Below are positions 36,025 through 41,416 of a stretch of 64,000 nt of DNA, piece by piece. Numbering within the stretch: position 1 is the first letter of the stretch; every line of letters begins with the position of its first letter. The stretch spans positions 3,162,001-3,226,000 of the forward strand of contig NZ_CP042430.1 in assembly GCF_007970665.1 (NCBI RefSeq), given 5' to 3'. The notes under the pieces are model-generated. The model saw only the letters and a program-made list of their open reading frames with translations. It was not told where the DNA came from and ran no database searches. This stretch comes from Baekduia soli. Its GTDB lineage: Bacteria; Actinomycetota; Thermoleophilia; Solirubrobacterales; Solirubrobacteraceae. A program made the translations under genes and the position numbers.

Positions 36025-36732
36025 TCAGCGCGACGGCTCACGGGCGCCGCCCACCGCGCAGGGCGTCTCGAGCTGGTGGTCGGGGAGGATGCCGGCGTGC
36101 CGGGCGACCGCGATCGCCTCCGACACGGCGCCGGCGCCGAGCTTGCTGCGGGCACTGTCCAGGATCCGGTGCACGATGCCCTCCTCCAGGCCCAGGTCGC
36201 GGGCCGTGGCGGCCGGCTCGATCTGCAGCTCGGCCATGGCGAGCAGGCGGTATTCCTTGGCCGTCAGGCGCGGAATCCAGGTGTGGGGCGGGGTGGACAG
36301 GAGGTCGTGGCGGCCCGCGAGGACCCGAGGCGCATGCGCGGTCCCGGCGCAGGCACGGACGGCGCGGAGCAGGACGGCGCGGTCGGCATCCTGGGTGACG
36401 CAGGCCGCGGCTCCGGCCCGAAGGCCGCCGCGGACCAGCGGCCCGTCGTTGTAGGCCGCCAGTAGCACGATGGGAACATCGGGACCGTCCTGGGCGAGCT
36501 CGGCCGCCACGCCGATGCCGCCCATGCCGGGCATGCGGATGTCAAGGAGCGCGACGTCGGGCTGGTGGTGGCGGATGAGCCGCAGGGCGGCGAGGCCGTC
36601 GTCGCCCTCGGCCACCACGGTCTCGCCGGCGTGCCGAAGCTCCCGGACCATCGCGCGGCGGTACAAGGGGTGATCGTCGACGACCACGAGGCGGAGGGAG
36701 TCGTGCCGGGCCGGCGTGGCAGATGGGTTCAT
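36025..36732 (-). CDS. NarL-type response regulator with altered receiver
   Basis: 235 residues. The receiver has VVVDDHPLYRRAMVRELRHA, phosphoacceptor Asp in ALLDIRMPGMGG and LLAAYND. The conserved Lys of GYLLKD is Gln (ACVTQDADRAV), which should affect phosphorylation-linked switching. The C-terminal HTH is LuxR-like but divergent: IPRLTAKEYRLLAMAELQIE, AATARDLGLEEGIVHRILDS. A tail of about 25 residues follows. It lies in a run of three NarL-type regulators. Confidence 0.82.
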   Translation of the reverse strand: MNPSATPARHDSLRLVVVDDHPLYRRAMVRELRHAGETVVAEGDDGLAALRLIRHHQPDVALLDIRMPGMGGIGVAAELAQDGPDVPIVLLAAYNDGPLVRGGLRAGAAACVTQDADRAVLLRAVRACAGTAHAPRVLAGRHDLLSTPPHTWIPRLTAKEYRLLAMAELQIEPAATARDLGLEEGIVHRILDSARSKLGAGAVSEAIAVARHAGILPDHQLETPCAVGGAREPSR

Positions 36733-36854: not shown

Positions 36855-37505
36855 CTACTCGAGCAGCCCGCGCCGCATGGCCTCGGCCACCGCCGCGGCG
36901 CGGTCCCCCACGCCGAGCTTCTCGTAGAGGTGGGCCAGGTGCGTCTTGACGGTCGCCGTGCTCAGGTAGAGCTGTGCGCTGATGGCGGGCGCGGACATGC
37001 CCTGGGCGATGAGCACGAGGATCTCGTGCTCGCGGGCGGTCAGCACCGGACGGTCGACATCGATCTCGCGGGCGTGGATCTCGGTGAACACGCCCGACTG
37101 CAGCCGCGGGTCCAGGACCTTCTCGCCGCGGGCGATCGCCGCGATCGCATCGCAGATGGCGTCGCGCTCGGCGTCCTTGGACCAGTAGCCCGAGGCGCCG
37201 GCCGCGACCGCGGCGTACACGACGGCGCTCTCCTGCGCGGCCGACAGCACGAGCACGCGCGTGGGGGAGTCGTCGCGCGCGAGGGCCTCCACGACGTCCA
37301 GGCCACGCAGGCCCGGCATCCGCATGTCCAGGACGGCGACGTCGGGCGACAGCCGCCGGATCTGCTCGAGTGCCTCACGGCCGTCGGACGCGGTGGCCAC
37401 CAGCTCGAGGTCAGGTCGGCCGGAGACCGCCTGGGCCAACGCCTCGCGGTACAGCGGGTGGTCGTCGGCGACGACGACCGTGGCGCGCTTGCGGGCCTCG
37501 GGCAT
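36855..37505 (-). CDS. NarL/FixJ-family response regulator
   Basis: 216 residues, canonical: VVVADDHPLYREALAQAVSG, phosphoacceptor Asp in AVLDMRMPGLRG, VLSAAQE, Lys in GYWSKDAERDA. The LuxR HTH follows (LTAREHEILVLIAQGMSAPA, STATVKTHLAHLYEKLGV). Divergent from the regulator at 37599 across 93 bp that hold the CATCC box. It is a candidate for the protein that binds that box, since NarL-type regulators recognise short palindromes. Confidence 0.9.
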   Translation of the reverse strand: MPEARKRATVVVADDHPLYREALAQAVSGRPDLELVATASDGREALEQIRRLSPDVAVLDMRMPGLRGLDVVEALARDDSPTRVLVLSAAQESAVVYAAVAAGASGYWSKDAERDAICDAIAAIARGEKVLDPRLQSGVFTEIHAREIDVDRPVLTAREHEILVLIAQGMSAPAISAQLYLSTATVKTHLAHLYEKLGVGDRAAAVAEAMRRGLLE

Positions 37506-37535: not shown

Positions 37536-37598
37536 TCATCCGTCATCACATCCGGTCGGCGGATGGGCGGGCTACGGAGGCGGGCCGAGCATGGCGTC
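37536..37598 (+). promoter_or_regulatory. CATCCG palindrome promoter of the regulator at 37599
   Basis: CATCCGGTCGGCGGATG (37549-37565) is a 6-5-6 inverted repeat centred 42 nt before the ATG. A further CATCCG half-site lies 12 bp upstream (37537). GAGCAT (37587-37592) is the -10 candidate 12 nt before the ATG. Same geometry at 39552 and 40445. Confidence 0.6.
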
Positions 37599-38276
37599 AT
37601 GTCCGATCAGACCCGGTCCGCCGTTCGTCCGCCCGCGCAGCGCTCGCGCGAACCCGCGCCGCGACCGTTCCGCGTCCTCGTGGCCGACGACCACCCGCTG
37701 GTGCTCGACGGTCTCGTGCGGGCCCTCCTCGACGACGGGCGCTTCGAGGTCGTCGGCCAGGCCTCCGATGGGGCGTCGGCCATCGTGCTGGCCGACGAGC
37801 TCGGGCCCGACCTTGCGGTCCTCGACGTGCGCATGCCCGGGATGGACGGGCTGCAGGCCATGGAGGCGATCGTCGAGCACGTCCCGCGGACGCGCGTCGT
37901 GCTGCTCAGCGCCTTCGACGACGAGCTGGTCATCACCAGTGCCGTGGCGGCCGGTGCTGCCGGGTACGTGCTCAAGGACACCGACCGCCGGACGATCTGC
38001 GACGCGCTGGCGCGGGTCGCCGGCGGGGAGACGGTGCTGCCCGAGGCCGGGCCCCGTCCCGAGCGTCCCTCGTCGGCCCGGCCCGAGCTCACCCTGCGCG
38101 AGCGCAACGTCCTGCTGTTGGTCGGCAACGGCTGGGATCACAAGCTCATCGCATCGTGGATGGACCTCGAGCCCGAGGACGTCGACTGGTACCTCAGCCG
38201 TGCCTTCGTCAAGCTCGGAGTCGATGAACCCGACCGGGCTGTGCTCTCGGCCCGTGCCTGCGGTCTGCTGCCGTGA
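37599..38276 (+). CDS. NarL-type response regulator
   Basis: 225 residues. The receiver follows a 22-residue basic leader: VLVADDHPLVLDGLVRALLD, phosphoacceptor Asp in AVLDVRMPGMDG, LLSAFDDE, Lys in GYVLKDTDRRT. The C-terminal HTH is degenerate but recognisable (LTLRERNVLLLVGNGWDHKL, DWYLSRAFVKLGV). Start chosen at 37599 because the -10 hexamer and the box fix it. It is followed 7 bp later by a HisKA_3 kinase, so the two are a pair. Its promoter carries the box shared with two other genes. Confidence 0.87.
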   Translation: MSDQTRSAVRPPAQRSREPAPRPFRVLVADDHPLVLDGLVRALLDDGRFEVVGQASDGASAIVLADELGPDLAVLDVRMPGMDGLQAMEAIVEHVPRTRVVLLSAFDDELVITSAVAAGAAGYVLKDTDRRTICDALARVAGGETVLPEAGPRPERPSSARPELTLRERNVLLLVGNGWDHKLIASWMDLEPEDVDWYLSRAFVKLGVDEPDRAVLSARACGLLP

Positions 38277-38283
38277 TCTCCAG

Positions 38284-39500
38284 GTGAGGGTGCAGCCGGT
38301 GGGGGAGACGGGCGGAGCAGGGGAGCAGGCTGCGGGCCTCGCAGACGTGCCCGGCGCGGTCGCGGTCGGTGTGCTGCGGCTCCTGCTCATGCCGGTCATC
38401 CTGATCGGCGAGCGGCTGGTCTCGCACCCGGTGCATCAGGGCGCGGCGTTCGTCGCGGTCCTCGCCGCCGGCGCGCTGTACGCCGTCGGTGCGCTGGCCG
38501 CTCACCTTCGATCGTGGCGCCGCGGCCGGGCGAGGGCCGGCTCTCCGGCCGCATGGAGCCGGTCGTCGACCTCCTGATGATCTGCGCGCTGGTCTACGTC
38601 TCCGGCGGTCCGTTCTCGCAGGCCCGGGCCGCGCTCTTCGCGCCGCCGCTGGTCGCCGCGATTCGCCTGCGGCCATGGCTCACCGCCGCCTGGGCGCTGC
38701 TCGCGGTCATCGCCTACGTCGCGGTCTCGCTGCCGCACCCGGCACTGCATGATCAGGACGCCGCCGGGCAGGTGCTGGTCGGCGCCTGTTACCTGGGGTG
38801 GGTCGGCCTGGCCGCAGTCGCGCTGTCGACCCTGCTGAGGACGCACACGGAGCGCCTGCGCCGGCTCGCCGACGAGCGGCGCAGCCTGGTCCGCCAGGCC
38901 CTGGAGTCCGAGAGCCGCGCGCGGCGACGGCTCGGCGCCTTCCTGCACGACCAACCCGTCCAGACGCTGCTGCTGGCCGCCCAAGAGCTCGAGGAGGCAC
39001 GGCGCGGCGATGCTCGCGCCCTGGACCGGGCCGAGACGGCCGTGCGCACGACGGTGGCGCAGCTGCGCTCCGAGATCTCCGAGCTGCACTCCCACGTGCT
39101 CGACCACGCCGGTCTCTGCGCGGCGCTCGACGACCTCGCCCAGCGCTGGTCGCGGCGCGCCGGCATCGCCGTCTGCGCCCGCGTCGACCCCGGCGCCACC
39201 GGCAGGCACGACGCGCTGATCCTCGCCGCGGCGAGCGAGCTCGTCGCCAACGCGGCGCATCACGGTGCGCCCGAGCGCATTGTCATCACCGTGAAGAACC
39301 GGGAGGGGAACGTCGCGCTGCGGGTCGCCGACGACGGACGCGGGATGGATCCGCAGACCCGCGCGGACGCGGTCGCGCAGGGACGCATCGGATTGGCATC
39401 GCTCACCGAGCGCGTGCAGGCGCTCGGTGGCCGGCTGGAGATCGGGCCCGTCTCGGGATCGGGCACCGTGGTCACCGCGATCGTCCCGCGCCGCCCGTGA
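38284..39500 (+). pseudogene. NarX-type histidine kinase, one frameshift
   Basis: A GTG at 38284 opens a frame with two TM segments (VGVLRLLLMPVILIGERLVS, FVAVLAAGALYAVGALAAHL) that ends soon after RSWRRGRAR. The next frame resumes near 38540 with MEPVVDLLMICALVYVSGGP and runs to the end. Read together they match the plan of the kinase at 29921. The kinase core is intact: His in RRLGAFLHDQPVQTLLLA, N-box ASELVANAAHHGAP, DDGRGMD, GRIGLASLTERVQALGG. A one-base deletion between 38515 and 38545 explains the break. A shortened protein starting at the GTG 38514 is also possible. Confidence 0.7.
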
Positions 39501-39551
39501 TGCCGCGGGCCTCGTCACATGACGACGCCGGACGGAACCTCATCCCCGGGG

Positions 39552-39602
39552 TCATCCGGTCGCGCGATGGGCGTCGCGGCGCGGCCGCAGCAGGGTGCTC
39601 GC
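39552..39602 (+). promoter_or_regulatory. CATCCG box promoter of the gene at 39603
   Basis: CATCCGGTCGCGCGATG (39553-39569) starts 50 nt before the ATG, followed by GGCG. CAGGGT (39591-39596) is the -10 candidate 12 nt before the ATG. No ribosome site. Confidence 0.6.
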
Positions 39603-39893
39603 ATGACGACTTCAGCGGCGGTGGTGGATCGAGGCGAGCCGATCACCTTGGCCGACGAGCTCGAGCGCGTCCGGCTCGTGCACCGCGTGCGCCGGATCGA
39701 GCAGGTGCTGTCGGTGCTGGCCGAGCGCCAGCGCGAGCGCGAGCTGTCCGGCGACGTGCCGCCGGGACTGGCTCTGGCGATCGAAGGCTTCGGTGCGGAG
39801 CGAGATCGCCTGTGCGTCCTGCTGGCCGGCGGCGCCGGTCGGCTCGCCGCCGCCGGTGGCGGAAGGAGCGCGCCACCTGCGGTGTCCTCCTGA
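39603..39893 (+). CDS. small hypothetical protein
   Basis: 96 residues. A helical, charged middle (ADELERVRLVHRVRRIEQVL, AERQRERELSG) suggests a short coiled coil; the ends are Ala/Gly/Ser-rich. No TM, no signal peptide, no known domain. The start is set by the promoter geometry. It is followed 27 bp later by the cupredoxin lipoprotein, probably in one transcript. Confidence 0.6.
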   Translation: MTTSAAVVDRGEPITLADELERVRLVHRVRRIEQVLSVLAERQRERELSGDVPPGLALAIEGFGAERDRLCVLLAGGAGRLAAAGGGRSAPPAVSS

Positions 39894-39920
39894 GCGGACC
39901 ACCGATCACGGGAGACGCGC

Positions 39921-40325
39921 ATGCATCTGAACACTCCAGCGAGCCTGGCACTGTTGGCCGGGATCGCCGTGCTCGCCCTCAGCGCCTGTGGCAGCTCGGC
40001 GCCAAAGGCCGCGACGTCCGCCGGCTCGACGTCGTCGACGACGCTCAGGCTCTCGGCCGACCCCGGCGGGGCGTTGAAGTTCGACACCACCAAGCTGAGC
40101 GCCAAGGCCGGCTCGGTCACCCTGCAGATGGACAACCCGGCCGGCAGCGGCGTTCCCCATGCCATCGCCGTCAGTGGCCATGGGGTCAACCAAGCGGGCC
40201 AGACGGTCCAGCCCGGGGGAACCTCGACGGAGACCCTCACGCTCAAGCCGGGGACCTACACCTTCTTCTGCCCGGTGCCCGGGCACGAGGCAGCCGGGAT
40301 GAAGGGAACGCTGGTGGTCAGCTGA
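39921..40325 (+). CDS. cupredoxin-domain lipoprotein (plastocyanin-like)
   Basis: 134 residues. Signal and lipobox: LLAGIAVLALSAC, lipidated Cys at residue 23. After a Ser/Thr/Ala linker comes a single cupredoxin domain with a complete type 1 copper site: His in GVPHAIAV, and Cys, His and Met in TFFCPVPGHEAAGMKG. It should be an extracytoplasmic electron carrier or copper-binding protein. Preceded by GGGAGA. Proximity to the nitrate genes is not close enough to infer a link. Confidence 0.87.
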   Translation: MHLNTPASLALLAGIAVLALSACGSSAPKAATSAGSTSSTTLRLSADPGGALKFDTTKLSAKAGSVTLQMDNPAGSGVPHAIAVSGHGVNQAGQTVQPGGTSTETLTLKPGTYTFFCPVPGHEAAGMKGTLVVS

Positions 40326-40444
40326 CGCCTGTCGCTTCGTCGGCGGGGCGGGCAATGCGCACCTCGGGTCGGCACGGAGGCCATCGCGCCGCTCGTGGCC
40401 GTCCGCTGGTGATGCGGTGGTGGCCGTGGCGCTCGTCCCGCGCA

Positions 40445-40495
40445 TCATCCGGTCGCGCGATGGGCGGCGGGTCATCTCGGGACGATCCTGGCGCG
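40445..40495 (+). promoter_or_regulatory. CATCCG box promoter of the G1 peptidase
   Basis: CATCCGGTCGCGCGATG (40446-40462) is identical to the copy at 39553, again 50 nt before the ATG. GATCCT (40484-40489) is the -10 candidate 12 nt before the ATG. Confidence 0.6.
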
Positions 40496-41416
40496 ATGGA
40501 CACCGAACCAGGCGCGACCCGCCGGCCGACCGGAACAGCCGCAGCCGCCCGGCCCCGCAGCGCCCCGCGACTCCTGGCCCTGGCCGGTGCCCTGGCGTGG
40601 CTGATCGCCACGACCTCGACCGCGATCGCGCACGCTTCGGCGACGGTGTCGAGCAACTGGGCCGGCTATGTCGCCCACCGCTCGGGTGTGCGCTTCGAGC
40701 ACGCGACCGCATCGTGGGTGCAGCCGACCACCACCTGCTCGGCGGGGCGTCGCACCTACTCCGCTGACTGGGTCGGGCTCGGCGGGTACTCCTCGACCTC
40801 GAAGGCGCTGGAGCAGATCGGCACCGAGGCCGACTGCTCCTCCAACGGCTCTGCGCACTACAGCAGCTGGTTCGAGATCGTGCCGCAGGCGGGCCGTCGT
40901 ACCCCGGTGGCGGTCCGGCCCGGCGACCTCGTCACGGCCGCCGTCACCGTCTCCGGTTCCACGGTGACCTTGCGCCTGGTCGACCACACCACCGGCGCCG
41001 CGTTCTCCCGCCGGACGACCGCCTCGCCGGTCGACGTGACGAGCGCCGAGTGGATCGTCGAGGCGCCGTCGCTCTGTCTCCCCGGGGCGCAGGCCTGCGA
41101 GACCATGCCCCTGGCCGACTTCTCCGGCACGACCTTCGGCGCAGCCGCCGCGACGGACCGGGCCGGGCACACCGGAGGGATCGCCGACCCGTCCTGGAGG
41201 GCGGTGAGCGTCGATCTCGCCACCGGTGCGGCGGCGGGTCGCTCGTTCGCCGACGGGCGTCTTGCGTCCATCCAGGCTGGGGGACGCGCCACGGTGGGCG
41301 GCCTCGACGGTCCTGGACGCAGCTTCACGGTGACCTACCAGGACACCCAGGCGGGACCTCCGGGCACGCCCGGGATCTCGGGCCCCGGCTCGCCGGTCGG
41401 GCCTCCGGGACCGTGA
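40496..41416 (+). CDS. G1-family (eqolisin) glutamic endopeptidase, secreted
   Basis: 306 residues. A twin-Arg-poor, long N-region then LLALAGALAWLIATTSTAIA as signal peptide (cleavage about residue 46). Mature domain begins SSNWAGYVA. The eqolisin landmarks are present: ATASWVQPTT with the catalytic Gln (residue 76), WVGLGGYSS, and AEWIVEAPS with the candidate catalytic Glu (185 or 189). The C-terminus is collagen-like (GPPGTPGISGPGSPVGPPGP). Acid-active secreted protease; such enzymes are best known from fungi, with scattered bacterial members. Controlled by the CATCCG box. Confidence 0.85.
   Translation: MDTEPGATRRPTGTAAAARPRSAPRLLALAGALAWLIATTSTAIAHASATVSSNWAGYVAHRSGVRFEHATASWVQPTTTCSAGRRTYSADWVGLGGYSSTSKALEQIGTEADCSSNGSAHYSSWFEIVPQAGRRTPVAVRPGDLVTAAVTVSGSTVTLRLVDHTTGAAFSRRTTASPVDVTSAEWIVEAPSLCLPGAQACETMPLADFSGTTFGAAAATDRAGHTGGIADPSWRAVSVDLATGAAAGRSFADGRLASIQAGGRATVGGLDGPGRSFTVTYQDTQAGPPGTPGISGPGSPVGPPGP

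What the first reader, a model, noticed from the sequence alone, without database searches (positions are those of the whole stretch)
37536..40495. A 17-bp box at a fixed position before three leaderless genes: a small regulon
CATCCGGTCGCGCGATG (or CATCCGGTCGGCGGATG) occurs at 37549, 39553 and 40446. In all three it begins exactly 50 nt before the ATG, and an NANNNT hexamer (GAGCAT, CAGGGT, GATCCT) lies exactly 12 nt before the ATG with no ribosome site. If transcription starts at the ATG, the box is centred at -42, the classical place for an activator that touches RNA polymerase. The genes are a NarL regulator, a 96-residue protein (with the cupredoxin gene behind it) and a G1 peptidase.
Basis: partly seen in the sequence, partly recalled or inferred. 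Interest (0 to 1): 0.75.

Follow-up and report, generated by a model that had tools for sequence, protein, structure and literature searches.

The report
NarL-type operator before leaderless genes
Three neighbouring genes carry the same switch sequence exactly 50 bases before their start, the only three copies in the genome, and comparison with relatives indicates it is the docking site of the NarL-type regulator encoded next door, probably turning on messages that begin at the start codon itself.

Summary
CATCCGGTCGNNNGATG occurs three times in the 5.21-Mb genome, all within 2.9 kb, each starting 50 nt before an ATG with NANNNT at -12. A sequence model of the promoter finds exactly these three in the genome (E about 5e-8 or better; next 0.04).

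Relatives support function. In G137 (another genus) the orthologue of the 37599 regulator has the box at exactly -50, GACCCT at -12 and no obvious ribosome site. The model, which stops at -6, found further sites with start codons exactly at +50 (L227 ATG, L324 GTG). Four of its 24 new hits in 146 genomes lie within 500 bp of a homologue of the 36855 regulator (P about 3e-10).

I identify the box as the operator of RR2 (36855-37505, minus strand). The 37599 protein (RR3) is a target; its DNA-binding helix is degenerate. The operator spans about -63 to -33 and overlaps -35, as for a class II activator.

Transcript starts, binding and signal are untested. It is a new regulon of a known kind.

The parts
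37536..37541 (+). upstream half-site TCATCC, promoter 1 (-63 to -58)
   Evidence: 12 bp before the box half-site; same position in all three window promoters and several relatives
37549..37565 (+). box 1 CATCCGGTCGGCGGATG (-50 to -34)
37587..37592 (+). -10-like hexamer GAGCAT
37599..38276 (+). RR3: receiver plus degenerate LuxR-type HTH, target gene 1
   Evidence: Pfam Response_reg and weak GerE; recognition helix TVKTHLAHLYEKL of RR2 aligns to DVDWYLSRAFVKL
38287..39500 (+). NarX/LiaS-like sensor kinase, probably in the RR3 transcript; apparent frameshift near 38500-38575
   Evidence: HATPase_c, kinase-family matches, 39% to the G137 kinase, frames
39540..39545 (+). upstream half-site TCATCC, promoter 2
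39553..39569 (+). box 2 CATCCGGTCGCGCGATG
39591..39596 (+). -10-like hexamer CAGGGT
39603..39893 (+). 96-residue protein of unknown family, target gene 2
   Evidence: no Pfam or NCBIfam match
39921..40325 (+). cupredoxin (plastocyanin-like), probably in the same transcript, with its own GGGAG ribosome site
   Evidence: Copper-bind; sequence
40433..40438 (+). upstream half-site TCGTCC, promoter 3
40446..40462 (+). box 3 CATCCGGTCGCGCGATG
40484..40489 (+). -10-like hexamer GATCCT
40496..41416 (+). G1 (Peptidase_A4) family peptidase, target gene 3
   Evidence: PF01828, E 6e-30
36855..37505 (-). RR2: NarL/FixJ-type response regulator, proposed activator that binds the box
   Evidence: Response_reg and GerE; box hits cluster at its homologues; clade with G137 and G134, all with boxes

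Best explanation
The box is the operator of the NarL/FixJ-type response regulator RR2 (36855-37505, minus strand). When phosphorylated, RR2 binds a compound site: a dyad (CATCCG-N5-CGGATG in box 1, CATC...GATG in all) at -50 to -34 plus a TCRTCC half-site at -63 to -58. From there it recruits RNA polymerase as a class II activator to weak -10 elements (NANNNT at -12 to -7). Transcription starts at or within about 2 nt of the start codon, so the mRNAs are leaderless. The regulon is local: RR3 with the sensor kinase (feedback on the signalling module itself), the 96-residue protein with the cupredoxin, and the G1 peptidase. Shown from sequence: the sites, their uniqueness, the fixed geometry, its conservation and the genomic link to RR2 homologues. 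Inferred: that RR2 is the binder, that it activates rather than represses, the transcript starts, and co-transcription of the second genes.
For: Three copies only in the genome, all before genes of one locus. In G137 the RR3 orthologue (69% over the receiver) has the box at exactly -50 and GACCCT at -12, next to an RR2 orthologue of 77%. Genus-mates G010, G005 and G008 have the box before receiver-only plus RR2-like genes, with an in-frame start at +51 or +52; G006 keeps -50, GAACAT and ATG although its box has diverged. New sites found by the model, which contains no start codon, have ATG (L227) and GTG (L324) at exactly +50. Four of 24 new hits in 146 genomes lie within 500 bp of an RR2 homologue, P about 3e-10. 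23 box-like scores in 270 kb around RR2 homologues against 1 in 297 kb of random stretches. At 41 other near-matches of the pattern none has A-11, T-7 and a start at +50 together.
Against: No binding or transcript data. Several RR2 homologues of 55-61% identity have no recognisable box nearby. Some non-window sites drive genes with a leader (G119:C10, G116) or a start at +55/56 (G139, G141). G137 L060:5246 has a GGAGG overlapping its -10. The kinase frame looks broken in this assembly. Two of the relatives' sites (L054, L060:5196) were noticed because of their start codon, so some counts are biased.
Confidence: 0.75

Rival explanations
1. The box is bound by another NarL-type protein of the locus, RR3 (37599) or RR1 (36025-36732), and RR2 is only a neighbour.
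For: All three regulators sit at the locus; in several genomes the box directly precedes the RR3-type gene.
Against: RR3 has a degenerate recognition helix and its counterparts in G137, G010, G005 and G008 are receiver-only with no DNA-binding domain. RR1 shows no GerE match. RR2 is the member with an intact HTH that is kept at these loci.
Confidence: 0.1
2. The site is a repressor operator: RR2 (or another protein) bound over -35 blocks polymerase.
For: The box overlaps the -35 region; bound position alone does not tell activation from repression.
Against: The fixed box to -10 distance over many promoters, weak -10 elements and no good -35 (no sigma-70 consensus match) are what an activator that contacts polymerase would need; a repressor would tolerate other spacings.
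Confidence: 0.1
3. The box is a -35-type element of an alternative sigma factor rather than a regulator site.
For: Fixed spacing to a -10-like hexamer; the right end of the box, TGGGCG, sits at -35 to -30, 17 nt before the -10.
Against: The conserved part reaches to -50 and, with the half-site, to -63, has dyad symmetry, and its genome-wide hits go with NarL-type regulators. Sigma factor genes near the boxes were not systematically searched.
Confidence: 0.04

Closest known systems
NarL/FixJ (LuxR-type HTH) response regulators: VraR, ChrA, NarL, DesR, DevR/DosR
   Same: RR2 has receiver plus GerE domains; best solved relatives are VraR 5hev (E 1e-35), ChrA and NarL; paired with a NarX/LiaS/MadS-like kinase; dyad operator.
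   Different: RR2 is far below every NCBIfam equivalog cut-off (best NarL 147 of 250 bits, MadR 140 of 300), so it is none of the named regulators; the operator sequence was not found in the papers searched.
Class II activation by LuxR-type regulators (site centred near -42, from general knowledge)
   Same: Box centred at -42 if transcription starts at the ATG, overlapping -35, fixed distance to -10.
   Different: Extra TCRTCC half-site at -63 to -58; transcript starts not measured.
Leaderless genes of Actinobacteria (M. tuberculosis, PMC3898074)
   Same: -10 motif 7-12 bp before the start, no conserved -35, start codon at the transcript start; about a quarter of genes with a primary start there. 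ANNNT core enriched in mycobacterial promoters (PMC5511352).
   Different: Here the leaderless start is tied to one specific operator at a fixed distance.

Membership tests
NarL/FixJ response regulator (RR2) | receiver domain followed by LuxR-type (GerE) HTH | tested here: met
   PF00072 E 6.7e-25 and PF00196 E 4e-16
NarL/FixJ response regulator (RR2) | dyad operator near its own locus and targets | tested here: met
   boxes at its homologues far above control; dyad CATCCG...CGGATG
NarL/FixJ response regulator (RR2) | phosphorylation-dependent DNA binding | not testable with these tools
   needs protein
named NarL-type equivalogs (NarL, MadR, VraR and so on) | score above the curated NCBIfam cut-off | tested here: not met
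   best 147 bits against a cut-off of 250
NarL/FixJ response regulator as DNA binder (RR3) | intact recognition helix | tested here: not met
   TVKTH of RR2 replaced by DVDWY in RR3; counterparts are receiver-only
class II activator-dependent promoter | site at fixed distance overlapping -35, -10 present, weak -35 | tested here: met
   spacing kept in other genera; no sigma-70 consensus promoter found
class II activator-dependent promoter | activation lost when the site or regulator is removed | not testable with these tools
   needs experiment
leaderless gene | transcript starts at or within 5 nt of the start codon, no ribosome site | tested here: inconclusive
   -10-like hexamer 12 nt before the start in all three and in relatives; ribosome site absent in two, doubtful before 39603; 5' ends unmapped

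The most novel reading that the evidence does not exclude
RR2 and its receiver-only or HTH-degenerate partner RR3 act together on a three-half-site operator, the partner being a conserved, operator-controlled modulator of RR2, in a system that ties activation to leaderless translation of secreted and envelope proteins.
Probability: 0.2. Interest if true: 0.6.

Novelty: new member of a known kind. Interest (0 to 1): 0.42.

Why it matters
It gives a defined operator, a proposed regulator and three targets in a bacterial family for which the paper searches made here turned up no described regulon. The fixed operator-to-start distance lets leaderless starts be predicted from DNA alone, and three promoters in one locus make the link between an activator's position and a leaderless start directly testable.

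Tried and rejected
One-mismatch pattern searches of relatives give many chance matches (against the reversed-pattern controls), so I kept only sites supported by gene context or by the model. A duplicated promoter segment was rejected: identity between boxes 2 and 3 stops after about 22 bp. A regulon spread over the genome was rejected. Distant RR2 homologues in named genomes (Mycobacterium, Rhodococcus, Ca. Solirubrobacter pratensis; 50-53%) show no strong box. Paper searches for the motif, for a lux-box parallel and for regulons in Thermoleophilia gave nothing that matches. One search used wrong minus-strand coordinates and was replaced.

Full report
Observation. The 5,212,251-base genome contains exactly three exact matches and none to the reversed pattern. 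With the flanking GGGCG and up to three mismatches allowed, every other site has three mismatches. A sequence-only model of 58 positions (-63 to -6), built from 11 promoters, gives three strong hits in this genome and then a gap of several orders of magnitude. All three sit within 2.9 kb, so this is a local regulon.

Anatomy. Aligning the three with eight sites from relatives shows what is kept: C.TCCG at -50 to -45 (A or G at -49), TCG at -43 to -41 with one exception, GATG at -37 to -34 in all, T at -7 in all eleven and A at -11 in eight. All three window promoters also carry TCRTCC at -63 to -58, repeated 12 bp later as the left half-site of the box; both L060 sites and L054 (CCATCC) have it too, and CC at the same place is present in most others. 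The likely operator is therefore about 31 bp, with two direct half-sites and one inverted one.

Conservation. In G137, a genome of another genus of the family, the locus carries a receiver-only gene, an RR2 orthologue, the kinase and an HtrA-like protease. Its receiver-only gene, 69% identical to the receiver of RR3, begins exactly 50 nt after a box with GACCCT at -12; a second box precedes a secreted-protein gene at the same distance. In genus-mates G010, G005 and G008 the box precedes a receiver-only gene plus an RR2 homologue, with an in-frame GTG, ATG and GTG at +51, +52 and +51. G006 keeps the geometry (GAACAT at -12, ATG at +50) with a diverged CCCCGATCGGG core. Of the 30 RR2-family loci looked at, six in other genomes have a receiver-only gene directly upstream on the same strand; all six have a box or its core, five with the -50 geometry and G119 with another spacing. 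G134 has the box 51 nt before an amino-acid permease next to its RR2 orthologue.

Independent tests. The model covers nothing downstream of -6, so start codons are a fair test of it; the hexamer is in the model and is less independent. Over 146 genomes it gave 24 hits beyond the training sites at E up to 0.003. Among them, L227 (G119) has GACACT at -12 and ATG at exactly +50 of a secreted protein, and L324 (G128) has GACCAT and GTG at +50. Four of the 24 lie within 500 bp of an RR2 homologue (binomial P about 3e-10, with approximate genome sizes). A weight-matrix scan gives 23 scores of 13 or more in 270 kb around RR2 homologues, against 1 in 297 kb of random stretches of relatives; three of the 23 are training sites, some palindromes count on both strands, and several lie in likely coding frames. 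L054 and L060:5196 were noticed because of their start codon, so the +50 count is biased by two.

Who binds. RR2 has an intact GerE domain, and its best solved relatives are VraR, ChrA and NarL. RR3 has lost the recognition-helix residues and its counterparts are receiver-only. The window's RR2, G137 and G134 form one clade (support 100/96) and all three loci have boxes. RR2 is therefore the best candidate, and RR3-kinase, 96-residue protein-cupredoxin and the G1 peptidase its targets.

Mechanism and status. Sites, uniqueness and geometry: shown. Link to RR2: strongly supported by genomic association. Activation from -42 on weak promoters, and leaderless transcripts: inferred, in line with the -10 pattern known in Actinobacteria, where about a quarter of M. 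tuberculosis genes with a primary start are leaderless (PMC3898074). Signal: unknown. Targets here and in relatives (G1 peptidase, cupredoxin, secreted proteins, a permease) suggest an envelope or secretion response, which is weak inference.

Limits. The kinase gene appears frame-shifted in this assembly, so the module may be damaged here or the assembly wrong.

Noticed in passing
window 38287-39500 (+): The kinase's N-terminal membrane part and its catalytic part lie in different frames, with the shift somewhere near 38500-38575; the G137 counterpart is uninterrupted. Assembly error or a damaged gene.
   Followed up: partly
window 36025-36732 (-): A third NarL-type regulator (RR1) behind RR2 with no recognisable GerE domain in Pfam and a good AGGGAG ribosome site.
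   Followed up: no
window 36855-37505 (-): The window's RR2 groups with G137 and G134 of another genus rather than with its genus-mates, so the module may have been acquired horizontally or kept differentially.
   Followed up: partly
L324:1564-1610: In G128 the GTG at +50 opens a 14-codon frame whose stop overlaps the ATG of the next gene (ATGA): a possible leaderless coupling ORF.
   Followed up: no
L158:6027-6046 and L216:1501-1555: In G141 and G139 a perfect palindrome CCACCGATCGGTGG stands at the box position directly before the RR2 homologue, suggesting CCGATCGG as the wider family core and autoregulation there.
   Followed up: partly
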